Below are positions 216 to 12,080 of a stretch of DNA of 35,811 nt, one piece after another. The translations under genes and the position numbers were made by a program. Below the pieces are notes generated by a model. The model searched no databases, was not told the DNA's origin, and was given only the letters and a program-made list of their open reading frames with translations. The stretch is from contig CAMBPQ010000029.1 in the NCBI GenBank assembly GCA_945869735.1, positions 1 through 35,811 on the forward strand. The letters run 5' to 3'. Each line of letters opens with the position of its first letter. The stretch's first letter is position 1. Source of the DNA: Planctomicrobium piriforme (GTDB lineage: Bacteria > Planctomycetota > Planctomycetia > Pirellulales > UBA1268).

Positions 216-1163
216 TCACGAGCCGCCCATCAGCTCGGAATCGGTTACGGACGTGCCATTGGCCGGGCTATCCTTCACGTGGCAGTGGGCGAGGACCTGC
301 TCCGGCGTGCTCACGTAGCCCGTGTAGAACGGTCCAAACTCGGCGTAGCGGGCGCTCGCCTCGTCGAATCGCATCGTGTAAACGATCTCCTTGAGCCATT
401 CAGGGCGCCGTGCCCAGAGGGTCACGCCCCACTCCCAGTCGTCGAGCCCGACCGACACGGTGATGAGTTGCGTCACGCGGCCACCAAACTTCATGCCGGA
501 GGCCCCGTGCTCGGCCATCAGCCGGCTCCGCTCCGCCCAGGGCAGCGTGAACCAGTTCTCGCCCACCTTCCGCTTCTTGTTCATGGGATAAAAGCAGACG
601 TTCGGCCACGGCGGCAGTTCCGGCTCGAGTCGCGCTTGCCGCATGGCCGGCTCACGGGCCGTATAGCCCTGCACCTTCGCCTTGTAGGACGGGCTGTCGG
701 CTACCTCACCCTCGGCCACCAGCCGCGCGGCATATTGCTCGACCGTGGGGACGTACTCGCTCACCTCGGTGAGACTCACAAATGAATACGTGGGCACGAG
801 CGCCGAGCCGAGCGGGCCGACGAGCAGCCGCTGGTGCACGTCGTCGACCTTGAGCGGATCCGGGTCCATCGCCATCACGCCGAAGTCGGCCTTGTGGCCG
901 GGCACGATCCAGGTCTGCAGCCGCGTGGGCGCGTGCGGCCCAGCCGGGTCGAGCGCCTCGGCGAACTGCCGAACACCAGCGGCCCGAGCCGCCGGCGTCA
1001 GGCCAGCCAGTCGCTCCCGGTCGAAGGCGTAAAACAGGTGGCTGCAATGCCACCCGGTGCACGGCTGGATCGCCGTTTCAACCGCGGCATGCGCGGCCCC
1101 GTGGGCGGCGTGCCCCCCGTGTGTGGCTGCGGCGGGTGGCTGGGCGGCGGGTTGTGTCACCAT
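216..1163 (-). CDS. hemQ: coproheme decarboxylase / chlorite dismutase-family heme protein (HemQ)
   Basis: Predicted 315-aa cytosolic enzyme that would oxidatively decarboxylate Fe-coproporphyrin III to heme b, the last step of the coproporphyrin-dependent heme pathway. The block YPMNKKR followed by ENWFTLPWAERSRLMAEHG matches the HemQ region that holds the catalytic Tyr (Y192 here) and the proximal His ligand (H219). GLDDWEWGVTLW follows, as usual for the family. The protein is longer than the ~250-aa Firmicute form because of a His/Ala-rich N-terminal tail and an insertion around 145-185. The open frame runs upstream to about 1529, but the ATG at 1163 is chosen because it has a GGAG about 9 nt upstream and the residues before it are not protein-like. 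It is transcribed divergently from the WXG operon. A plain chlorite dismutase is less likely given the Tyr-containing HemQ motif. Confidence 0.88.
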   Translation of the reverse strand: MVTQPAAQPPAAATHGGHAAHGAAHAAVETAIQPCTGWHCSHLFYAFDRERLAGLTPAARAAGVRQFAEALDPAGPHAPTRLQTWIVPGHKADFGVMAMDPDPLKVDDVHQRLLVGPLGSALVPTYSFVSLTEVSEYVPTVEQYAARLVAEGEVADSPSYKAKVQGYTAREPAMRQARLEPELPPWPNVCFYPMNKKRKVGENWFTLPWAERSRLMAEHGASGMKFGGRVTQLITVSVGLDDWEWGVTLWARRPEWLKEIVYTMRFDEASARYAEFGPFYTGYVSTPEQVLAHCHVKDSPANGTSVTDSELMGGS

Positions 1164-1341: not shown

Positions 1342-1614
1342 ATGGGACAGGCAATCGTCGATCCGGCCGAACTTCGCCGCTTCGCGGGCAGCCTGCGGAA
1401 GTTCAGTGAGGAAGTCGTGGCCCAAATGCAGATGGTGCAGCGGCAACTCGCCGCCTTGAGTGCCACTTGGCGCGACCAGGAGCAGCAGAAGTTCGCGGAG
1501 GAGTTCGAGGCACAGCTGGGCACGTTCAAGCGGTTCGCCGAATCAACGGGCGAGTACGTGCCCTACCTGATCCGCAAGGCCGAGCGGGTCGAGGAGTATC
1601 TCCAGCAGCGCTGA
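1342..1614 (+). CDS. WXG100-like small helical protein
   Basis: A 90-aa protein, all helical by composition, without signal peptide or membrane segment. It has two amphipathic helices separated by SATWRDQ at 40-46, a W-x-D turn replacing the usual W-x-G, followed by an acidic/aromatic helix with regularly spaced Phe (F51, F55, F62, F66). Length, central Trp turn and position at the head of an operon ending in an FtsK/EccC-type ATPase all fit the WXG100 (EsxA/EsxB) family, whose members are dimeric substrates or components of type VII secretion. No C-terminal YxxxD export signal is obvious, although E71-Y72 and Y75 lie near the end. The ATG at 1342 has AGGGGAA upstream. Gene-level confidence is high; the family call is moderate because the sequence is short. 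Confidence 0.75.
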   Translation: MGQAIVDPAELRRFAGSLRKFSEEVVAQMQMVQRQLAALSATWRDQEQQKFAEEFEAQLGTFKRFAESTGEYVPYLIRKAERVEEYLQQR

Positions 1615-1690
1615 CAGTCCGCCGTGGACGAATAACCGTCGCCGCCCGCACGGCTGCGATTCGCGGATGGCAGGCAGGGAGAGGATACCG

Positions 1691-2302
1691 ATGTCGACAC
1701 AGGCAGACGTCAAATCGATCGACACGCTGGCCTTCATCAAGGCCGCGTTCGCCGTGTTTGGCCACGACAGCGGTCAGGCCATCTCGGAAGTCGAAATGCA
1801 GGGGCAGCGGGCCGTCGAGTGGATCACGGTCGACCAGGCCGCCTACTGGAAAGCCGAGATGCGCAAGGCGACCGAACTCGTCAACAAGGCGATCAAAGAC
1901 CTCGAGTATTGCCGCGCGTTTAAGAAGGTGGGCAACAACCAGCCTTCGTGCATCGAGGAGAAGAAGGCGCTGGAAAAGGCCAAGCAGCGGCTGGCGCGGG
2001 CCGAGCAGAAGGCCGAGGCCGTGCGTCGCTGGACGCCCCTCGTGCAGCAGCAGTTCCGCGAGACCTGCGTGCGGCTGGTGCGGTTTCGCGAGGTGATCGA
2101 CGTCGACTGCCCGCGTGCTATGTCGCAACTCGAGAAAATGCTCAAGGCGCTCGATGCCTACCGGCAGGTGTCCTCTCCGACCGGGGGTGCCGAGGGTGGC
2201 GGCTCGGCGGGTGGCCAGAGCGTTACCCGGCAACTCGACGAGCCACGGCCCGTTTCACCGGCCGCGCCGCCCGCCGACGGCCAGCCAGGAGCATCCTCAT
2301 GA
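1691..2302 (+). CDS. coiled-coil protein of unknown function in the WXG/ATPase operon
   Basis: A 203-aa soluble protein I do not recognise. Residues ~1-135 are strongly helical with charged heptad-like stretches (EEKKALEKAKQRLARAEQKA). Two cysteines lie at intermediate positions, and the last ~50 residues are a low-complexity Gly/Ser then Pro-rich tail. No signal peptide or membrane span. The ATG at 1691 is preferred over an in-frame ATG 24 nt upstream because a purine-rich AGGGAGAGG stretch precedes it at good spacing. Its stop overlaps the next start in ATGA fashion (2299-2302), showing translational coupling. Given the neighbours it could be a longer helical substrate or an adaptor between the WXG-like proteins and the ATPase. 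That is inference from context only. Confidence 0.75.
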   Translation: MSTQADVKSIDTLAFIKAAFAVFGHDSGQAISEVEMQGQRAVEWITVDQAAYWKAEMRKATELVNKAIKDLEYCRAFKKVGNNQPSCIEEKKALEKAKQRLARAEQKAEAVRRWTPLVQQQFRETCVRLVRFREVIDVDCPRAMSQLEKMLKALDAYRQVSSPTGGAEGGGSAGGQSVTRQLDEPRPVSPAAPPADGQPGASS

Positions 2303-2535
2303 GGGTCGGTGACCTCTCCAGCGGCGCGTCGAAACTGGCCAACGCGCTCAAACAGCTCAACCTCAAGTGGGAAGTCGCCGGCGAAGGCTGGCATGACGTC
2401 CGCGCAAAAGCCTTTCAAAAAGACAACATCGAACCGCTGACGCCGAGCGTCAAGGAGACGCTCGACGCCCTGGGCCGGCTCGCCGAGGTGCTCGACCGGG
2501 CGATCCGCGACGTGAGCGACTCCGACGGCATGTAG
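2299..2535 (+). CDS. second WXG100-like small protein (WxD turn)
   Basis: A 78-aa protein coupled to the upstream gene by a 4-nt ATGA overlap. Two predicted helices flank GEGWHDVRAKAF (29-39), again a W-x-D turn followed by an aromatic position, the arrangement seen in WXG100 and related helical hairpins. The C-terminal helix is acidic and heptad-like (LGRLAEVLDRAIRDV). There is no signal peptide. With the 90-aa protein at the start of the operon it could form an EsxA/EsxB-like pair. That pairing is inferred from gene order, not shown. The protein is slightly shorter than classical WXG100 proteins (~100 aa). Confidence 0.7.
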   Translation: MRVGDLSSGASKLANALKQLNLKWEVAGEGWHDVRAKAFQKDNIEPLTPSVKETLDALGRLAEVLDRAIRDVSDSDGM

Positions 2536-2575
2536 CCGTCGCCATTCCGCACCGCCCCCTGAGGAAGATCCCCGC

Positions 2576-5500
2576 GTGAGCACGACGCCCTCCGAACCAT
2601 CGTCCGCTGTCCCGTCGGTCTACGACCGCGGTCTTCTCCGCGGCCAGATCGACATTCTCCGCCGCGAGGCCGCGACTCGCGCGCGACTCGAAAACGAGAT
2701 CCAGACGGAGCACGACACACGGGTCGCCGAAGTCCGGCGGAAGTCCGAGGCCGGCCTCGCGGCGACGCACAAGAAATACGCCGGCGAGATCGAGGCGACC
2801 ACGCGGGAATATGCGGCCATCCTCCAGAAGGCCGCCGCCTATCTCGTCGCCGAGCAGAAGAAACTCGACGACCAGCGGGCGGCGATGGTCAAGAAGATCA
2901 CCCGCGAGTCGGAAAAGCTCGTGCAGCAGTCGAAGGAGGAGGACCAGTTCGAGGAGGGCTCCTTCCGGGAGGTCTTCAAGGAAAAGAAGAAGGATCCGCT
3001 GCGGCTGTTCGCCAAGGGGGAAAAGGATCTCGCCCGCTCAATCACCCAGATCGACGAATCGACCACCAAGGTCAACTCGTTCCTTGAAGGCCGGCGGCTC
3101 AAGGCCTTGGCGATCGATGCGTCCGCTCCGGCTGGAGCCTCGGAAGGCGACCTGATCCAGACCTTTGATCGGCTCCGGCTCGCGGTCGACGAGCAGGCGA
3201 AGGCGCTCCTCGGACTGCCGGCTGCGAAGACCGCCTTCGGCGGTGGGCTCCAGGCGGCGGCGATCGCCGTGCCCCTCCTGCTTGGGGTCGCGGCGGCTGC
3301 GGCGGCGTTCTTCCTGCTGCCGGGTGAACTCGGCCTCAAGGCTGGTGCGGCCGGCGCCGTGGCGGCGGTCCTCGCGGGCGGTGGCATCGGCGGCGGCCTC
3401 TGGACGATCGGCAGGATGCGGTCGCGGGTCCGCAGCCAGCTCGGCGAGATGGCGACGGAACTGGCCGCGACCGCCGGCCAAGCCGCGAGCCTCAAGCAGC
3501 CCTGCCTCGTCTTTCTCGCGACCCGTCGCGACCAGCAATCGGTGAAGCTCGAGGAACGCTTCAAGCATGAGACGGATCAGCGGTCGGCCCAGTCGGAGGC
3601 GAAGCGGGTCGCCATCCTCGCCAAGCGTGACAAGTCGCTCGCCGACCTCGAGGGCAAATACAAGGCCACGACCGAAGTCATCGCCGCCAAGGTGGCGGCG
3701 GCCCGGGACGCAGCGGAGATGAAGTATCCGCCCCGGCTGGTGGCGCTTGAGACGAGCCGCCGAGAAGACGTCGAGCGGCTTGAGCAGGAGCGGGACGAAA
3801 GCCTGGCGGCGGCCGTCGCACACCAGCGCGACCGCCACGCGGCAATGACCGCCCAGTGGCGTATGGCCCGCGAGCAGACGGCGATCATTTATGACGAGGC
3901 GAACCGGATCGATGCGACGGCCTTCCGTTCGTGGGACGAACTGGCCCGCGACGACGTGCCCCTGCCGGTCGAGCCGCCGCCCGGGCTACGTTTTGGGAGC
4001 GTCGCCCTCACCCTTGAGAAGCTTCCCGGAGGCGTGTCGAGCGATCCGGCGCTGAATGCCTTCGGTCCGATCTCCTGGACGCAGCCGGCCATCCTGCCAT
4101 GGCCCATCGAGTCGTCGCTGCTCATCAAGACGTCGCCCGAGGAGAAGGAGACCTCGTCCGCGATGATGCAGGCGCTCATGCTACGGATCGCCTCGGGCAT
4201 CCCGGCCGGCCAGAGCCGGTTCACGATTATCGATCCGCTCGGCCTTGGCAAACAGTTCGCCGGCTTCATGCACCTTGCCGACCACGACGAACTGCTCGTC
4301 ACCAGCCGTATTTGGACCGAGCCGCAGCTCGTCGAGCAGAAGCTCGCCGACATCACCGAGCAGATGGAGGTGGTGATCCAGAAGTACCTCCGCAATGAGT
4401 ATGAATCGATCGGCGCCTACAACGCCGACGCCGAGGTGCCTGAGCCGTATCGCTTCGTCGCCGTGGCAAACTTCCCGGCCAACTTCAACGAAACGAGCGC
4501 ACGGCGGCTGGCAAGCATCGCGTCGTCCGGGGCCCGCTGCGGCGTCTACGTGATTCTCTCGGTCGATCTGACCCAGCAGATGCCTTCCGGGTTTAGCCTC
4601 GCCGACATCGAGCAGCAGTGCACCACGCTCGTGCTCAAGAACGGCGTCTACACCTGGAAAGACGCGGAGTATTCCAAGTGGCCGCTGACGGTGGAGCAGG
4701 CGCCATCCGACGAGGTCTTCACGAAGATCATCCAACGGGTCGGCAAGGCGGCGAAGGCGGCCAAGCGGGTCGAGGTGCCCTTCGACCGGGTCGCGCCCGC
4801 CGAGGAGGACTGGTGGAAGGGGAGCACGGCCAGCGAGGTCCTCGCGCCCCTCGGGCCCGCAGGCGCCAAGAAGCTTCAGTTTCTCAAACTCGGCAAGGGC
4901 ACCAGCCAGCACTGCCTGATCGCCGGCAAGACGGGCTCGGGCAAGTCGACGCTGATGCACGCGATGATCACGAGCCTGGCGCTCCAATACAGCCCCAACG
5001 AGATCCAGTTCTATCTCATCGACTTCAAGAAGGGCGTCGAGTTTAAGCTCTATGACCACTACAAACTGCCGCACGCGCGGGTGATCGCCATCGAGAGCGA
5101 ACGGGAGTTCGGCCTCTCGGTGATGGAGCAGCTCGACCGCGAACTCAAGCGACGCGGTGACCTGTTCCGGGAACTCTCGGTGCAGGACGTGGCGGGTTTC
5201 CGCAGGACGGGCCATTCCGACCCGATGCCCCGCATCCTACTGATCATCGACGAGTTTCAGGAAATCTTCGTCGAGGACGACAAGATCGCGCAGGATGCGT
5301 CGCTGATTCTCGACCGTCTCGTCCGTCAGGGCCGTGCCTTTGGCATGCATGTGCTGCTCGGCTCCCAGACGCTGGGCGGATCGTACAGCCTCCCGCGGGC
5401 GACGATGGGGCAGATGGCCGTCCGAATTGCGCTGCAGTGCAACGAGGCCGACTCGAGCCTGATCCTCAGCGAGGACAACACCGCCGCCCGGCTCCTCACG

Positions 5501-6751
5501 CGGCCAGGCGAGGCGATCTACAACGACGCCAACGGCATGGTCGAGGGCAACAACCCGTTCCAGGTCGTGTTTCTCAACGACGATCGCCGTGAACGCTATC
5601 TCGGTGCGCTGCGGCAGCTCGCCGACCGGCGAACCGACATTCCGGCCGTGCCCCGGATCGTGTTCGACGGCAACCAGGCGGCCGACCCAGCCGGCAATCC
5701 GCTGCTCACCGAACTGCTGCACGCGGGCACCGTGCATGGCCACGAACTCGTCGCGCCGCTCGCCTGGTTTGGCGACGCGATCGCGATTAAGGATCCGACC
5801 GCGGCGATCTTCCGCCGCCAGGGCGGGGCCAACATGCTGATCGTCGGCCAGCGGGAGGATCTGGGCACGGCAATCCTGGCGATGGCAATGGTGAGTCTGG
5901 CTGCCGGCCACGATCCGTATCCGGGCGGCGGCTTCGGCCGGCCGGCGCGGTTCGTGCTCATGGAGCCGGCGATCGCAGAGGAGAAGCCAGATATCCTACT
6001 ATCGCAACTCGCAAACCACCTGCCGCATGAGATCGAAATCGTTGGTCGCCTGGGTGTGACCGACGCCTGTGAGCAGCTTGCGGCGGAGGTGAAGCGGCGG
6101 CTCGACGATCAGGTGCTCAACGGCGAGGCTGTATTCGTGATCGTCCGTGACCTCGGCCGGTTTCGCGAACTCCGCAAGAGTGACGGCGACTTCGGCTACT
6201 CACTCGGCGACAAGAAGGCTGGACCTGCCGACAACTTCCTCACGGTCCTCAAGGATGGTCCGTCGGTCGGCGTCCACATGATCATCTGGTGCGACTCGCT
6301 CACAAACCTGCAGCGGACATTCGACCGCAACGCGGTCAAAGAGTTCGAACTGCGGGTGCTCTTTCAGATGAGTGGCAACGACTCGAGCCAGCTGGTCGAC
6401 AGCCCGGTGGCTGCAAAACTTGGCCCTCAGCGAGCGCTCTTTATCCACGAGGAAACGGGCACGCTCGAAAAGTTCCGCCCCTACGCATTCCCGACCGGGG
6501 AGTGGCTCGACGCGGTAGCCGCAGAGATGCGAAAGCGGCCGCAGGGATCTCGCGTCGAGCGGCCGGCCCCGAAAACCCCAACAGCATCGACTGAAGCGGC
6601 TACCGCAGGCGATACTGAAACGGGTCTGGGCGGCTTCAGCGGGTTTGGCGGCGGCGGTGACTTCAACTTTTCGAAGATGCTCGACGACCTGCCGGGCGGC
6701 GCACCGGCGGACGACGGCTCCGGGCCTGCCCCCGAACCGCCGGCAGCGTGA
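2576..6751 (+). CDS. giant FtsK/SpoIIIE-EccC-like membrane ATPase
   Basis: A 1391-aa protein with GTG start and GAGGAAG ribosome-binding site at 2561-2567. Residues ~20-210 are charged coiled coil. Two hydrophobic segments at ~226-247 and ~254-276 form a membrane hairpin. A second coiled coil spans ~285-440. Three ATPase-like modules follow. The middle one is canonical FtsK/SpoIIIE: Walker A GKTGSGKST at 784-792, FYLIDFKKGVEF just after it, and Walker B LLIIDEF with D892-E893. The module before it (~500-720) has no P-loop. The module after it (~1080-1250) has GQREDLGT where the P-loop should be. The tail is Gly/Phe then Pro-rich. Three modules in series after a TM hairpin resemble EccC/EssC of type VII secretion rather than DNA-translocating FtsK, which has one module and a gamma domain. 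No EccB, EccD, EssB or mycosin gene lies nearby. Substrate translocation is inferred. Confidence 0.85.
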   Translation: MSTTPSEPSSAVPSVYDRGLLRGQIDILRREAATRARLENEIQTEHDTRVAEVRRKSEAGLAATHKKYAGEIEATTREYAAILQKAAAYLVAEQKKLDDQRAAMVKKITRESEKLVQQSKEEDQFEEGSFREVFKEKKKDPLRLFAKGEKDLARSITQIDESTTKVNSFLEGRRLKALAIDASAPAGASEGDLIQTFDRLRLAVDEQAKALLGLPAAKTAFGGGLQAAAIAVPLLLGVAAAAAAFFLLPGELGLKAGAAGAVAAVLAGGGIGGGLWTIGRMRSRVRSQLGEMATELAATAGQAASLKQPCLVFLATRRDQQSVKLEERFKHETDQRSAQSEAKRVAILAKRDKSLADLEGKYKATTEVIAAKVAAARDAAEMKYPPRLVALETSRREDVERLEQERDESLAAAVAHQRDRHAAMTAQWRMAREQTAIIYDEANRIDATAFRSWDELARDDVPLPVEPPPGLRFGSVALTLEKLPGGVSSDPALNAFGPISWTQPAILPWPIESSLLIKTSPEEKETSSAMMQALMLRIASGIPAGQSRFTIIDPLGLGKQFAGFMHLADHDELLVTSRIWTEPQLVEQKLADITEQMEVVIQKYLRNEYESIGAYNADAEVPEPYRFVAVANFPANFNETSARRLASIASSGARCGVYVILSVDLTQQMPSGFSLADIEQQCTTLVLKNGVYTWKDAEYSKWPLTVEQAPSDEVFTKIIQRVGKAAKAAKRVEVPFDRVAPAEEDWWKGSTASEVLAPLGPAGAKKLQFLKLGKGTSQHCLIAGKTGSGKSTLMHAMITSLALQYSPNEIQFYLIDFKKGVEFKLYDHYKLPHARVIAIESEREFGLSVMEQLDRELKRRGDLFRELSVQDVAGFRRTGHSDPMPRILLIIDEFQEIFVEDDKIAQDASLILDRLVRQGRAFGMHVLLGSQTLGGSYSLPRATMGQMAVRIALQCNEADSSLILSEDNTAARLLTRPGEAIYNDANGMVEGNNPFQVVFLNDDRRERYLGALRQLADRRTDIPAVPRIVFDGNQAADPAGNPLLTELLHAGTVHGHELVAPLAWFGDAIAIKDPTAAIFRRQGGANMLIVGQREDLGTAILAMAMVSLAAGHDPYPGGGFGRPARFVLMEPAIAEEKPDILLSQLANHLPHEIEIVGRLGVTDACEQLAAEVKRRLDDQVLNGEAVFVIVRDLGRFRELRKSDGDFGYSLGDKKAGPADNFLTVLKDGPSVGVHMIIWCDSLTNLQRTFDRNAVKEFELRVLFQMSGNDSSQLVDSPVAAKLGPQRALFIHEETGTLEKFRPYAFPTGEWLDAVAAEMRKRPQGSRVERPAPKTPTASTEAATAGDTETGLGGFSGFGGGGDFNFSKMLDDLPGGAPADDGSGPAPEPPAA

Positions 6752-6917: not shown

Positions 6918-8027
6918 CTACCGTGGCCGGCGGCCGACCTGCACGGCGACCGCCTGCGGACTGCCATCGCGGACGATCTTGAGTTCGACGGTCGCGCCGA
7001 TCGGAGCCCTCGTGAGCTGGAGCACAAGCCCCGCCGGCTCGGCGACGGGCTCGTCATCGAACGACACGACCACGTCGCCGCGGCGGATGCCAGCCAGTGC
7101 GGCGGGCGAATTCGGCTCCACCGCCTCGACGACCACACCAAAGACACTCGGCCCCGACGACCGCAGGGCCATGCCGAGATAGCCCCGCTCCACGTAGCCG
7201 CTCGCAAGGATCGCGCTGCTCACCTGCCGTGCGACGTTGCTTGGGATCGCGAAGCCGATGCCGCTGTAGTCCTTGCCGACGATCGCCGTGGTGATGCCGA
7301 TCACGCGGCCGTGCACGTCCACGAGCGGACCACCCGAGTTGCCGGGGTTGATCGACGCATCGGTCTGGAGGAACTCCTGGTAGGGGCTGTTGAGCACTCC
7401 GCGACGCCCCACGGCGCTCACGATCCCGTAGGTCAGCGTGCGGTCGAGCCCGAACGGATTGCCGATCGCCCACACCATCTCCCCCACCTCAATCGAGTCG
7501 CTATCGCCCCAGGCCGCCGCCGGTAGTTCCCGGGCGTCGACTCGCAGCACGGCCATGTCGGTTGCGGGGTCGGCGCCCAACAGCTCGGCCGTGAAGCGAC
7601 GACCGTCGGACAGCGTGACGTCGATCTGGTCGCTGTTGGCGACCACGTGATAGTTCGTGAGGATCATCCCGTCGGATTCGACGATCACTCCCGATCCCAC
7701 CTGCTCGTCGGTGACGCCGACCGGTGACAGTCCGCGGAGGGCCGCGATCTCGTCGGCGACCGTCACCAGCCGCCGCTTCGACGTGACGTTGACGACCGAC
7801 GGGCCGATCAACCGGGCGAGCGTCGTGAAGAGCTTGCCCACCGCCGTCAGCTCGGCCCCGGCGGCCGCGTCGCGGATTGCGGCGATCTCGGCCCGGGTCC
7901 GCGCGTAGTGCATTCGGCCCACGAACGACGGCCAGGCAATCAGCCCCACGAGCGTCAATAACCCCGCAAAGAGAAACAGCGTCCGGCGGGCGGCCGCTGT
8001 ACGACGATCGTCTGGGACGTCTTTCAT
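6918..8027 (-). CDS. membrane-anchored HtrA/DegP-type serine protease with one PDZ domain
   Basis: A 369-aa envelope protease. An uncleaved hydrophobic anchor at ~17-36 (LFLFAGLLTLVGLIAW) places the rest outside the cytoplasmic membrane. The trypsin-like domain carries the full triad: H127 in TNYHVV, D157 in TDMAVL and S231 in GNSGGP. The oxyanion region INPGNSGG is intact. A single PDZ domain at ~280-367 has the carboxylate loop YLGM. Architecture matches DegS/HtrA-like quality-control proteases that cleave misfolded or signalling substrates. Its start overlaps the cinA stop by 4 nt (8024-8027), so the two are co-transcribed with cinA first. Its 3' end abuts repeat copy A. A second HtrA lies at 10770, so the genome has paralogues. 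Confidence 0.93.
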   Translation of the reverse strand: MKDVPDDRRTAAARRTLFLFAGLLTLVGLIAWPSFVGRMHYARTRAEIAAIRDAAAGAELTAVGKLFTTLARLIGPSVVNVTSKRRLVTVADEIAALRGLSPVGVTDEQVGSGVIVESDGMILTNYHVVANSDQIDVTLSDGRRFTAELLGADPATDMAVLRVDARELPAAAWGDSDSIEVGEMVWAIGNPFGLDRTLTYGIVSAVGRRGVLNSPYQEFLQTDASINPGNSGGPLVDVHGRVIGITTAIVGKDYSGIGFAIPSNVARQVSSAILASGYVERGYLGMALRSSGPSVFGVVVEAVEPNSPAALAGIRRGDVVVSFDDEPVAEPAGLVLQLTRAPIGATVELKIVRDGSPQAVAVQVGRRPR

Positions 8028-9238
8028 GCCTGCGGCTCCCGCCCCATCCGATTGCTCCCGGCCGCCTGCAGGCGGACGAGGTTTAAGGCTGTCTTCGTCG
8101 CCCTGGAGGCGGCCAGTTCGAGGCCACCGCCAAGCACGTGCTCGGTCACGGTCGTGCCGTCAGCAGTGGCAATCGCGATGTCGACCGCCTGACGGCCGTC
8201 GGCCGCCGGACGTACGGCGCCCACACCGAGCCCCACGGCCGCGTCAAACTCCCTCCGCGCCCGCTCGGCAAGCGATCGCGGGTCGACGGAGCTCGCTTGT
8301 GACAGGACAATGCCGCCCCGGAATGCCCCGGCGGTCGCTCGTCGCGCGGCCGCCTGCGCGAGCAGCGTCGCGACCCGGCCCGCCGTGCCGACCTCGACGC
8401 TCGCAACCGAGCCCCCGTCCGCGGCGACGGCTGCGAGCGTCGCATCCTCGATCTCGTCGTCTTCGACGCCGTACACAATCACTCCCAGGCATTCGCGGAT
8501 CGTCGCTTCAGTGGGCGCGATCTTCGCCAGGCAGTCGGCCTCGTCGCGGCCGCGGGCGGCGATCCGCAGCGTGATCGTCGCCTCATGGGCGGTGATGCCG
8601 ACGAGCGGATCACGCCCCCGCCGAATGAGGTCGGGAAGCATCGCCTCGACCGTACTCTCGCCCGCTCCAAAACACTTGATCCGGCGCTGCACGATTGTCA
8701 CCCGGCCCGGCATCATGCCGAGCAGCGCCAGCTCCACGGTGTCGCTCCACATCCGCTTCATCTCCGAAGGCACACCCGGCAGGGAGAAGACCCGGCATCG
8801 GCCACCAGCGCGATCGAGATCAATGTCGATACCGGGCGCTGTGCCATCGGGATTGGGGATGATCCGGCTGCCGCGGGGAAACAGCGCCTGCCGCCGGTTC
8901 GACTCCGGCATCGGCGCGTTGCGACGGGTGAATCGAGATTCGACGGCCACCAGCGCCTCCTCCGAGAGGTCCAGCGGCACGCCTGCCACTGCCGCCAACA
9001 CGTCCCGCGTCAGATCGTCGGCCGTGGGACCGAGACCGCCGGTCACCACCACGACGTCGGCTCGGCCGGCGGCTAGGCGAAACGCCTCGATCCCCGCCTC
9101 GAGTGTGTCGGGCACCGTGGTGTGGAACGTCACTGGAATCCCCAGCACGCCCAGTTCGGCCGCCATCCAGCGGCTGTTGGTGTCGAGCCGCTGCCCGGAA
9201 GTCAGTTCGTCCCCGATCGCAATCACTTCGGCGTGCAT
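8024..9238 (-). CDS. cinA: CinA-family protein (MoCF domain plus degenerate C-terminal domain)
   Basis: A 404-aa cytosolic protein with both domains of CinA. The N-terminal MoCF-like (COG1058) half begins MHAEVIAIGDELTSGQ and contains TGGLGPTADDLT at 66-77, typical of CinA ADP-ribose pyrophosphatase modules. The C-terminal ~150 residues occupy the place of the CinA NMN deamidase domain, and the terminal segment with ATKTALNLVRL fits. The hallmark AESCTGG segment, which carries active-site residues in NMN deamidases, is replaced by SVEVGTAG around 280-287, so deamidase activity is doubtful. The family takes part in pyridine nucleotide recycling and was named for competence and damage induction. 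It heads a two-gene operon with the HtrA protease. Confidence 0.88.
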   Translation of the reverse strand: MHAEVIAIGDELTSGQRLDTNSRWMAAELGVLGIPVTFHTTVPDTLEAGIEAFRLAAGRADVVVVTGGLGPTADDLTRDVLAAVAGVPLDLSEEALVAVESRFTRRNAPMPESNRRQALFPRGSRIIPNPDGTAPGIDIDLDRAGGRCRVFSLPGVPSEMKRMWSDTVELALLGMMPGRVTIVQRRIKCFGAGESTVEAMLPDLIRRGRDPLVGITAHEATITLRIAARGRDEADCLAKIAPTEATIRECLGVIVYGVEDDEIEDATLAAVAADGGSVASVEVGTAGRVATLLAQAAARRATAGAFRGGIVLSQASSVDPRSLAERARREFDAAVGLGVGAVRPAADGRQAVDIAIATADGTTVTEHVLGGGLELAASRATKTALNLVRLQAAGSNRMGREPQA

Positions 9239-9378
9239 CGTGCGTCGACAGGCTCCCTCGGCGGCGGCCCCACGCGGCCACCCATCACCACCCCTCTATA
9301 CACTCCGCGAAGCGCCGCGAACAGCCGCGGCGGACGCGGGGCTGGCCGCTTTCGACGTGTGCGGGAACAATACCGACC

Positions 9379-10572
9379 ATGCACATCGGACTTCTCGGCA
9401 GCGACGCGAGGATGGCGGAGATCGTGGCGGCAGCCATCCGCCGCCAAGACCGGGTCGTAGCGACCTGGGGAATCGACGACACGCACCTGCCCCGGGTCGC
9501 CTCTTGGGAATCGCTGCTCGACCCGGCCACCTGCGACGTGGTGCTCGTGGGCTCCGACGGCTGGGACCCATCGCGGGCCGACGCAGTCCGCGCCCTGGTG
9601 CAGGCCGGCCGACCGCTCGTGCTCGCACAGCCGCTCGAGCTCTCAATGCTCTGGGCCTACGAGCTCGACATGATCCGCCGCGACACCGGGAGCCTGCTCA
9701 TCCCTTGTCTACCCGAACGGCTGCATCCCTTCGTGGGCCGGCTTCGTGAGACAATCACAGCGGCACTCGCCGGCGTCGGCGACCAGGGCCCGGCGGAATC
9801 CCTCTTGCTCGAGCGCCGGATGCCAGAGCGGACGCGGGACGCAGTGCTCTCGCAGCTCTCCCGCGATGCCGACCTCATCCGGGCAATCGTCGGCGACCCG
9901 ACGAGGCTCTCGACGCTGGGCTCCGCCTCCCCGGATTCGGCATGGAACACGCTTGCCGTCGGCTTCACCAGCCCGACTCAGCTGCCCGTCCGTTGGCAGG
10001 TGGCCCCGGGCACCGAATCAGGGCTGACGCTGCGGCTTCAGGCAGCCCGCAGCGCGGTCGTGGTTGATGCCCCTGACGATTCCGCACGGCCGTGGACCTG
10101 GTCTGGCACGGCCGTCGATGTGGCCAGTTTCGACCGCGGTGCCACGATGCTCGCGGTGATCGATCGCACTCTGGCGGGCAAGGCCGCAGTGGCGGACGAT
10201 GGCGAGGCTGCCACCTGGGCCGATGCGGCGCGGGCGATCGAGCTCGCCGAGACCGTGCCGCGGAGCCTCGCCAGGGGCCGTGCGATCGACCTCCATCGGG
10301 AGGAGTTCTCAGAGATGGGCACCTTTCGCGGCACGATGGCCTCGCTGGGCTGCGGACTGATCATGGCCGCGCTGATGGTCATCGTCGTCGCCACGCTGCT
10401 GGCGGGGATCGCGCAGGAGTTTGGCTGGAAAATCGTCGGCACCGTGGCCGACTCCTGGCCCATGATCGTGCTTGTGGTGCTGGGCATCTTCCTCACCCTG
10501 CAACTGCTTCCACTTCTCGTGGGGGCCGACCGCAACGATGACGGCCCCGCTGCCCCGGACGGCGGAACATGA
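9379..10572 (+). CDS. Gfo/Idh/MocA-like Rossmann protein with C-terminal membrane hairpin
   Basis: A 397-aa protein. Residues 1-125 resemble the NAD(P)-binding half of Gfo/Idh/MocA oxidoreductases: MHIGLLGSD at the nucleotide-binding turn, then a CDVVLVGS strand and a helix leading to GRPLVLAQP, in the position of the family's KP-containing motif. The Gly-rich turn and the catalytic Lys are not canonical, so dehydrogenase activity is uncertain. The middle (~130-310) is unrecognised. Two long hydrophobic segments at ~321-343 and ~357-382 end the protein, which would tether the Rossmann domain to the cytoplasmic face. The ATG at 9379 is preferred over upstream in-frame codons, whose residues are Arg/Pro-rich. 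It is divergent from cinA. Confidence 0.65.
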   Translation: MHIGLLGSDARMAEIVAAAIRRQDRVVATWGIDDTHLPRVASWESLLDPATCDVVLVGSDGWDPSRADAVRALVQAGRPLVLAQPLELSMLWAYELDMIRRDTGSLLIPCLPERLHPFVGRLRETITAALAGVGDQGPAESLLLERRMPERTRDAVLSQLSRDADLIRAIVGDPTRLSTLGSASPDSAWNTLAVGFTSPTQLPVRWQVAPGTESGLTLRLQAARSAVVVDAPDDSARPWTWSGTAVDVASFDRGATMLAVIDRTLAGKAAVADDGEAATWADAARAIELAETVPRSLARGRAIDLHREEFSEMGTFRGTMASLGCGLIMAALMVIVVATLLAGIAQEFGWKIVGTVADSWPMIVLVVLGIFLTLQLLPLLVGADRNDDGPAAPDGGT

Positions 10573-10769
10573 ATCATTTCCCGGGCGGCGGCATGTTTTT
10601 CCGCGTCGCCCCTCCGACCATCCGCCGGGCCCCTCGGCTGGGAAAGTGTGCCGGCTGGCGGGCGCCTGATGAATCGCCGGGGCGCAGAGGTCGATCCTTT
10701 CTCCAGCGGTGTGGGGTCGCTGGCCGGTAGGCGGCGAATCACCCGACTGGACGGGGGAGTCAAATCTGC

Positions 10770-12080
10770 ATGCGGTGTCCGACGGCTTTCCTGCCGCTGG
10801 TTGTGGTCGCGGTCGCCGCGCTCGCATGCCCACCCGCCGAGGCTGAGTCTCGCCGCACAGCCATTGTGCAGGCCATCGAGTCACAACGTGATTCGGTCGT
10901 TAACATCCACGGCCAGAAGGTCGTGGGCGGTGATGCCGGCGACGAGAGCCAGCTCCGCCGCGTCAACGGGATGGGCACGGGTGTGGTTGTCGATCCGCAT
11001 GGGTACGTGGTAACCAACTATCACGTGGTGGAGGGCGTGCGGCGAATCGAGGTCACGCTCGCCTCCGGCAAGACGACCTCTGCCACGCTCGTGTCGCACG
11101 ACCCGCGGACCGACCTCGCCGTGATCAGGCTCGAGACTGACGAATGCCTGCCGGTCGCATCCATCGGCACTTCGGCCGACCTGATGATCGGTGAGACGGT
11201 GCTCGCCCTCGGAAATGCCTATGGCTACGAGCACACCGTCACTCGCGGCATCGTCTCGGCCCTGCACCGCAACGTGGAGGTGAGCCGCACCCAGCGGTAT
11301 GAAGACCTCATCCAGACCGACGCCAGCATCAACCCCGGCAACTCGGGCGGACCGCTCCTCAACATCAATGGCGAAGTGATCGGCATCAACGTGGCGGTCC
11401 GAGCCGGTGCCCAAGGCATCGGGTTCGCGATTCCGATCGACCGGGTGCTCGACGTGGTCTCGAGGCTCCTCTCGGCCGAACGGATCGACCACACCTGGCA
11501 CGGCCTCGTCGTCCGTGGGGACGCCCCGCGGGGCGCCGTGGTGGAGGCAGTCCATCGCGAGAGTCCGGCCGAAAGGCTGGGCATGCGGGCGGGCGACCTG
11601 ATCACGAAGATCGACGACGTGACCGTGTCGCATCAGCTCGACGTCGAGCGGGCCATGCTCGGACGCAAGGTGGGCGAGAGCGTGGCTGTGACCGTCGTAA
11701 GAGCGGGCGCCGCCGAGCGGTTCGACCTCCCGCTGGCGGAGGTCCGCCGCGACGCCGTGTCGCTCGACGACCGCTGCTGGGCAGAGATTGGCTTGCGACT
11801 CCAGCTCGTGCCAGCCGCCAAGATTCAGAAGCTCCAGGCCCGCTACCGCGGCGGGATGCTCGTGACCGCTGTCCGCGACGGTGGCCCCGCCAGCGAGCAG
11901 GGCATCCAGGAGGGCGACATCCTCGTCGGGCTCCACGTGTGGGAGACGATCGCACCCGAGAACATCGCCTACATCCTCGACAAGGCGGTGGAGGATCACC
12001 TCAACCCAATCAAGTTCTATGTGCTCCGCGGCCGCGAAACGCTCTTCGGTGAAATCGTCTCAGACACGGTCCGCCGCTGA
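10770..12080 (+). CDS. secreted HtrA/DegP-type serine protease with two PDZ domains
   Basis: A 436-aa periplasmic protease. A Sec signal peptide (MRCPTAFLPLVVVAVAALAC, likely cleaved after the AEA at 23-25) precedes the trypsin-like domain. The triad is complete: H85 in TNYHVV, D115 in TDLAVI, S192 in GNSGGP. PDZ1 spans ~243-322 and PDZ2 ~337-428, the DegP/DegQ plan. This contrasts with the single-PDZ anchored paralogue at 6918-8027. A GGGGGA ribosome-binding site precedes the ATG. About 197 nt separate it from the upstream gene and its own 3' gap is full of palindromes, so it may be monocistronic. The role in envelope protein quality control is inferred from the family. Confidence 0.93.
   Translation: MRCPTAFLPLVVVAVAALACPPAEAESRRTAIVQAIESQRDSVVNIHGQKVVGGDAGDESQLRRVNGMGTGVVVDPHGYVVTNYHVVEGVRRIEVTLASGKTTSATLVSHDPRTDLAVIRLETDECLPVASIGTSADLMIGETVLALGNAYGYEHTVTRGIVSALHRNVEVSRTQRYEDLIQTDASINPGNSGGPLLNINGEVIGINVAVRAGAQGIGFAIPIDRVLDVVSRLLSAERIDHTWHGLVVRGDAPRGAVVEAVHRESPAERLGMRAGDLITKIDDVTVSHQLDVERAMLGRKVGESVAVTVVRAGAAERFDLPLAEVRRDAVSLDDRCWAEIGLRLQLVPAAKIQKLQARYRGGMLVTAVRDGGPASEQGIQEGDILVGLHVWETIAPENIAYILDKAVEDHLNPIKFYVLRGRETLFGEIVSDTVRR

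What the first reader, a model, noticed from the sequence alone, without database searches (positions are those of the whole stretch)
1342..6751. Candidate minimal ESX/type VII-like export operon
Two small WxD-turn helical proteins (90 and 78 aa) flank a 203-aa coiled-coil protein and are followed by a 1391-aa membrane ATPase with an EccC-like plan. All are in one tightly packed operon, with a 4-nt overlap inside. None of the other known type VII parts (EccB/D/E, mycosin, EssA/B, EsaA) are near. If real, this would be a secretion machine reduced to substrates plus motor in a diderm bacterium.
Basis: partly seen in the sequence, partly recalled or inferred. Interest (0 to 1): 0.75.

Follow-up and report, generated by a model that had tools for sequence, protein, structure and literature searches.

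The report
Four-gene WXG100/EccC-like cassette
The window holds a conserved four-gene unit, found across the Planctomycetes-Verrucomicrobia group, in which a motor protein related to the engine of type VII secretion is encoded with two tiny WXG100-type proteins and a long hairpin-shaped protein; a related unit on a plasmid of another bacterium carries a toxin domain at the hairpin protein's position, but nothing yet shows that the unit exports anything.

Summary
The four genes are real, under strong purifying selection, and nearly always the same set. P1 (90 aa) is a WXG100-family protein. P3 (78 aa) is a second small protein with an invariant WxD. P2 (203 aa) is modelled as a long two-helix hairpin with a disordered tail. 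[quoted passage not shown] P1-P2-P3 sit directly before P4 in 52 of 57 testable loci, mostly Planctomycetota and Verrucomicrobiota. P1 and P4 co-occur in 38 of 41 genomes that hold either, even where unlinked. No EccB/D/E or EssA/B genes are nearby.

It is not a newly reduced ESX system. A 2012 survey already noted 'solo WXG' proteins with a three-domain, middle-active FtsK ATPase in planctomycetes and verrucomicrobia. New here: the fixed four-gene anatomy, P2 and P3, TM-less forms, and a plasmid relative in which the P2 position carries a nuclease with an immunity gene. The known T7 export motif is absent from P1 and P3. Most likely P1/P3 hand P2 to the P4 motor. Export across the membrane is plausible but unproven; an intracellular conflict or stress role is the main rival.

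The parts
1342..1614 (+). P1, 90 aa WXG100-family protein with WRD turn; nearest solved relative H. pylori HP0062 (same WRD)
   Evidence: Pfam PF06013 E 9.4e-8, over cut-off; PDB profile hit 3fx7 E 1.2e-9, EsxB 1.6e-7; 108 of 117 orthologs exactly 90 aa
1691..2302 (+). P2, 203 aa; two antiparallel helices (aa 10-76, 88-161) plus disordered Pro-rich tail; likely cargo/effector position
   Evidence: AlphaFold2 mean pLDDT 87, helices ~97; no informative Pfam/NCBIfam/PDB homologue for the window protein; C-terminal Imm33-like domain in Phycisphaerae orthologs
2299..2535 (+). P3, 78 aa second WxD small helical protein; overlaps the P2 stop by 4 nt
   Evidence: W31 and D33 invariant; sub-threshold WXG100 E 0.003; profile-profile with P1 83% probability
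2576..6751 (+). P4, 1391 aa EccC-like ATPase: coiled coil 1-225, TM hairpin ~225-285, coiled coil to ~440, D1 (degenerate), D2 (intact P-loop 784-792), D3 (degenerate), low-complexity tail

Best explanation
The cassette is the Planctomycetota/Verrucomicrobiota branch of a little-studied T7-like kind of system: a solo WXG100 protein with an FtsK/HerA ATPase that has three domains and only the middle one active. Shown: the four genes form one conserved, co-inherited unit; P1 is WXG100; P4 has the EccC order (TM pair, stalk, DUF-like D1, active D2, inactive D3). Inferred: P1, perhaps as a dimer and perhaps with P3, acts as adaptor. P2's long hairpin is the targeting part of the cargo, in the way an LXG domain is; its C-terminal part is the variable payload (a nuclease at the same position in a Helicobacter plasmid relative, an Imm33-like domain in Phycisphaerae, a disordered tail here). 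P4 forms a ring at the inner membrane and uses ATP hydrolysis in D2 to pull or remodel P2, most likely translocating it across the inner membrane. That last step is the least certain.
For: Synteny: P1-P2-P3-P4 in the same order in the genus, family and order, in most distant loci of the phylum, and in 52 of 57 testable loci found by P4 alone, including Verrucomicrobiota and a Lentisphaerae MAG. Co-occurrence in the same 294 genomes: P1 in 40, P4 in 39, both in 38 (Fisher p 3e-44), including genomes where the two are unlinked. P1. P4 fold: D1 matches the EccC5/EccC3 DUF region (Z 15-16), D2-D3 match EccC and EssC ATPases 2-3 (Z 28-29); only D2 keeps Walker A and B, in 66 of 66 sequences. TM hairpin in 63 of 65 full-length relatives from the wider scan. 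Cargo reading of P2: the Helicobacter plasmid has P1-like, then a helical protein with WHH/Colicin-DNase C-half, SUKH immunity, a 77-aa ORF and a P4-like gene; Rhodococcus has a P2-profile match E 1e-8 with a different C-half; Phycisphaerae P2 carry Imm33-like domains.
Against: No channel partner was found: YukD and YukC are absent from the genome, with working controls, and no fifth gene recurs beside the cassette. The T7 export motif YxxxD/E is in 0 of 117 P1 and 1 of 117 P3 C-termini. P4 has no TM segment in several genomes of the window's own genus, in L184 and L202, and none was found in the Caballeronia, Helicobacter or Deinococcus relatives. The window's P2 has no recognisable payload. 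The P2-position proteins of Helicobacter and Caballeronia do not match the P2 profile convincingly. Plasmid relatives sit in defence-like or Ter contexts.
Confidence: 0.5

Rival explanations
1. An intracellular conflict or stress-response complex that exports nothing: the ATPase, tethered or not to the membrane, holds or remodels P2 through the WXG proteins and releases its effector activity on infection or damage.
For: P4 relatives without a TM segment. On the Caballeronia plasmid the unit stands beside a CARF-nuclease, VWA, PP2C, kinase and helicase. On the Rhodococcus plasmid it stands beside TerD and DUF475 genes. Published WxG+FtsK genes occur with the TerY-P triad, whose modules are linked to restriction or suicidal action against phages (PMC4978471). 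No export motif.
Against: The TM hairpin is kept in nearly all PVC members. The window lineage keeps the cassette in almost all genomes with no toxin domain and no defence neighbours recognised. No PADLOC model specific to such a system matched.
Confidence: 0.33
2. A DNA translocase of the FtsK type whose small partners regulate DNA pumping.
For: FtsK motor domains give the highest structural Z for the middle domain.
Against: No FtsK gamma domain match. D1 and D3 are inactive. Nearly every relative has a separate FtsK-like ORF, mostly about 900-1000 aa. Profile E-values favour EccC/EssC over FtsK by more than 20 orders of magnitude. The partner is a WXG100 protein.
Confidence: 0.05
3. A decaying remnant of a former full ESX/T7SS that lost its membrane parts.
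For: The known T7SS partners are missing.
Against: Strong purifying selection, strict co-inheritance across the phylum and beyond, and a PVC clade of P4 separate from the plasmid relatives. A similarly small set exists in other phyla.
Confidence: 0.03

Closest known systems
'Solo WXG' plus YueA-like ATPase with three HerA/FtsK domains, only the middle active (Zhang et al. 2012, PMC3482391, Table 1 note 6)
   Same: WXG100 protein, three-domain ATPase with only D2 intact, presence in planctomycetes and verrucomicrobia.
   Different: Here P2 and P3 are fixed partners, the unit is present in nearly all members of the window's family, and P4 has a coiled-coil/TM-hairpin N-terminus.
H. pylori HP0062/HP0066 and the WxG+FtsK genes of the TerY-P island (PMC3397514, PMC4978471)
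   Same: HP0062 is the best solved match to P1 and has the same WRD bend; it clusters with an FtsK/SpoIIIE protein.
   Different: The H. pylori island also holds kinase, phosphatase, TerY and nuclease genes; the P4 relative on the Helicobacter plasmid examined here has no TM segment found.
T7SSb of Bacillota (EsxA, EssC; LXG toxins) and subtypes T7SSc-j (PMC11217815)
   Same: WXG100 protein plus membrane ATPase as the common core.
   Different: No YukD/EsaB, YukC/EssB or FHA domain found; one active ATPase site, in D2; no YxxxD/E in P1 or P3.
Mycobacterial ESX (EccC)
   Same: Order TM pair - stalk - DUF-like domain - ATPase domains; P1/P3 pair reminiscent of EsxA/EsxB.
   Different: Probably one ATPase domain fewer than EccC; no EccB/D/E or mycosin neighbours.

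Membership tests
Solo-WXG / three-domain FtsK-HerA ATPase systems (PMC3482391) | WXG100 protein encoded with the ATPase | tested here: met
Solo-WXG / three-domain FtsK-HerA ATPase systems (PMC3482391) | ATPase with three FtsK-like domains, only the middle active | tested here: met
   AlphaFold2 model with three RecA-like domains; Walker motifs only in D2, 66 of 66
Solo-WXG / three-domain FtsK-HerA ATPase systems (PMC3482391) | mobile, sporadic distribution | tested here: inconclusive
   near-universal in the window's genus and family, patchy in the phylum (40 of 294), P1 and P4 homologues on plasmids of other phyla
Type VII secretion system (T7SSa/b) | EccC/EssC-type ATPase with TM pair | tested here: met
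   met for the window (TM hairpin ~225-285; EccC-like domains), but the TM pair is missing in some close relatives
Type VII secretion system (T7SSa/b) | WXG100 protein | tested here: met
   P1 over Pfam cut-off
Type VII secretion system (T7SSa/b) | EsaB/YukD and EssB/YukC (T7SSb) | tested here: not met
   no match in the genome, control B. subtilis rang
Type VII secretion system (T7SSa/b) | EccB (T7SSa) | tested here: inconclusive
   no match, but no control rang
Type VII secretion system (T7SSa/b) | C-terminal YxxxD/E export motif in the small partner | tested here: not met
   0 of 117 P1, 1 of 117 P3 in the last 35 aa
Type VII secretion system (T7SSa/b) | ATPase-dependent export of the small proteins | not testable with these tools
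   needs a secretion assay
FtsK/SpoIIIE DNA translocase | C-terminal gamma domain | tested here: not met
   no gamma-domain match in P4; separate FtsK-like ORF in nearly every relative
LXG polymorphic toxins | LXG domain | tested here: not met
   no PF04740 match in P2 or anywhere in the genome, control rang
Polymorphic-toxin-like effector with helical N-part and variable C-part (P2) | different C-terminal domains on a shared N-part | tested here: inconclusive
   Imm33-like in Phycisphaerae and a different C-half in Rhodococcus share the P2 profile; the nuclease protein in Helicobacter is P2 by position only

The most novel reading that the evidence does not exclude
A toxin-free, vertically inherited housekeeping version of a mobile toxin-delivery cassette: a one-motor, four-protein machine that moves a long hairpin protein across the inner membrane of diderm PVC bacteria without any of the known type VII channel proteins.
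Probability: 0.25. Interest if true: 0.8.

Novelty: new variant of a known kind. Interest (0 to 1): 0.5.

Why it matters
Type VII secretion is treated as a Gram-positive and mycobacterial system. Here its two universal parts occur as a conserved four-gene unit across the Planctomycetes-Verrucomicrobia group, with homologues on plasmids of other phyla. That makes two open questions testable in one small unit: what a WXG100 protein and its ATPase do without the other machinery, and whether the ATPase alone can translocate a protein. It also gives a defined gene set for asking what HP0062 and HP0066 of H. pylori do.

Tried and rejected
P2 against Pfam, NCBIfam and PDB by sequence and fold: only generic coiled-coil matches. 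P3 against PDB: nothing significant. P1 in phages: none. P4 relative in phages: only partial FtsK-like matches. Search for a fifth conserved partner beside the cassette: none; other gene families recur in at most 11 of about 100 loci. A C-terminal HxxxD/ExxhxxxH pattern occurs in about a third of P1 and of P3 and was not used as evidence. Canonical FtsK paralogue, decay of a full T7SS and LXG membership were considered and rejected (see rivals and membership). The literature search found no paper devoted to this unit in planctomycetes; Sutcliffe 2011 on the distribution of WXG100 systems is cited by papers in the library but was not available to read.

Full report
What is there. Four + strand genes, P1 (1342-1614, 90 aa), P2 (1691-2302, 203 aa), P3 (2299-2535, 78 aa) and P4 (2576-6751, 1391 aa, GTG start), form one tight operon with a 4-nt P2/P3 overlap. 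Comparison with the nearest relative gives dN far below dS for all four. The flanking genes lie on the other strand and are conserved only within the window's genus and near relatives.

What the proteins are. P1 passes Pfam's WXG100 cut-off; its profile hits H. pylori HP0062 (E 1e-9), Bacillus EsxB (E 2e-7) and, more weakly, EsxA structures. P3 keeps an invariant W-x-D in every aligned row, is a sub-threshold WXG100 match, and aligns with P1 by profile at 83% probability, so its membership of the WXG100 fold is likely but not proved. P2 is predicted with high confidence as two antiparallel helices of 67 and 74 residues followed by a disordered tail; no informative structural relative was found. 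P4 has a coiled-coil N-terminus, a TM hairpin near residues 225-285, and three RecA-like domains. The first resembles the EccC DUF region, the second and third the EccC/EssC ATPases. Only the middle domain has intact Walker motifs, in all 66 sequences compared.

How conserved it is. In 40 relatives the ATPase is nearly universal in the window's family and common in the order, and nearly every genome also holds a separate FtsK-like ORF, mostly about 900-1000 aa. The order P1-P2-P3-P4 is kept in all but one of the loci of the genus, family and order with enough flanking sequence; the exception is L051. In the same 294 genomes of the phylum P1 occurs in 40 and P4 in 39, with 38 in common (p 3e-44). 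Two of the three mismatches are contig ends and the third is a highly fragmented assembly. In G063, G190, G254, G144 and some others P1 and P4 are far apart yet both present, which argues for a functional link rather than hitch-hiking. A scan of a collection of 84,980 species with P4 alone gave 80 loci, mostly Planctomycetota, with several Verrucomicrobiota, one Lentisphaerae and one MAG labelled Anaerolineae. Of 57 with at least 1.7 kb before P4, 52 have P1, P2 and P3 there and 5 have none of them. No fifth gene recurs.

Relatives outside the group. A Caballeronia plasmid has a P1 homologue (E 4e-28) and a P4 homologue (E 1e-144) in one gene run with a 437-aa ORF (codon count) and two small ORFs between them, followed by a CARF nuclease, VWA protein, PP2C phosphatase, kinase and helicase. 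A Helicobacter plasmid has a P1-like gene, a helical protein ending in a WHH/Colicin-DNase domain, a SUKH immunity gene, a 77-aa ORF and a P4-like gene. A Rhodococcus plasmid has P4-like, P2-profile (E 1e-8), small and P1-like genes next to TerD and DUF475. A Deinococcus plasmid has a P4-like gene with P1-like and P3-like small ORFs after it. In Phycisphaerae P2 is often extended by an Imm33-like domain. These observations suggest that P2 holds the cargo position and that its C-terminal part is exchangeable. For Helicobacter and Caballeronia the P2 and P3 equivalence rests on position only.

Membrane anchoring. The TM hairpin is present in 63 of 65 full-length P4s of the wide scan but absent in several genomes of the window's own genus, in L184, and in L202, whose start is uncertain. 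None was found in the Caballeronia, Helicobacter or Deinococcus relatives; the long N-terminal part of the Rhodococcus P4 was not resolved. In the tree the TM-less forms of the window's genus do not form one clade but are mixed with TM-bearing ones, and their first ~226 residues are only about 33% identical to the window's while the rest is above 70%. This suggests loss or exchange of the N-terminal module. It weighs against P4 being an obligate membrane channel.

Export signals. YxxxD/E is in 0 of 117 P1 and in the C-terminus of 1 of 117 P3. YukD, YukC and LXG are absent from the genome while controls rang; EccB could not be judged. So membership of classical T7SS is not claimed, though P4 may work like EccC.

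Relation to known work. Zhang et al. [quoted passage not shown] A Helicobacter pan-genome paper (PMC4978471) calls WxG plus FtsK a minimal T7SS set and names HP0062 and HP0066. HP0062 is described with a WRD bend and an FtsK/SpoIIIE neighbour (PMC3397514). The window's cassette belongs to this kind. What this analysis adds is the four-gene anatomy with P2 and P3, the strict co-inheritance, the predicted structures, the TM-less forms, the missing export motif and the toxin/immunity relative. I found no experimental study of it.

Verdict. The type VII-like reading is right at the level of homology; 'reduced export machine' is unproven. Best model: WXG adaptors deliver the P2 hairpin to the P4 motor at the inner membrane (0.5), with an intracellular conflict or stress complex as the main rival (0.33).

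Noticed in passing
L043-L048, L050 (window's genus): P4 lacks the TM hairpin and has a strongly diverged N-terminal ~226 aa while the ATPase part stays above 70% identical; these forms are mixed with TM-bearing ones in the P4 tree, suggesting N-terminal module loss or exchange.
   Followed up: partly
L033:7273-7971 (G016): P2 and P3 are read in one open frame of 232 aa instead of two overlapping genes; either a natural fusion or a frameshift in the assembly.
   Followed up: no
L051 (G031), 7662-11603: P4 homologue without P1-P3 beside it, shortly downstream of a large polyketide/fatty-acid-synthase-like gene.
   Followed up: no
window 6550-6720 (P4 C-terminal tail): Low-complexity Gly-rich tail ending in a short conserved motif (about DFxFxKxLDD) in the window's family but not in other families.
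   Followed up: no
L061, L062 (G032, G022): Very large (about 1650-1790 aa) proteins with a C-terminal FtsK domain, a different kind of FtsK-like protein from P4.
   Followed up: no
L207 (Caballeronia plasmid pSBC2-5), 11267-24264: Cluster with WXG100, P4-like ATPase, Card1-like CARF nuclease, VWA, PP2C, Ser/Thr kinase and helicase: a candidate conflict or defence island.
   Followed up: partly
window 216-1163 and 6918-9238, - strand: Flanking genes (a 315-aa protein, a PDZ-type trypsin-like protease and a cinA-like gene, names from my own reading of the sequence) kept around the cassette within the genus only; probably unrelated neighbours.
   Followed up: no
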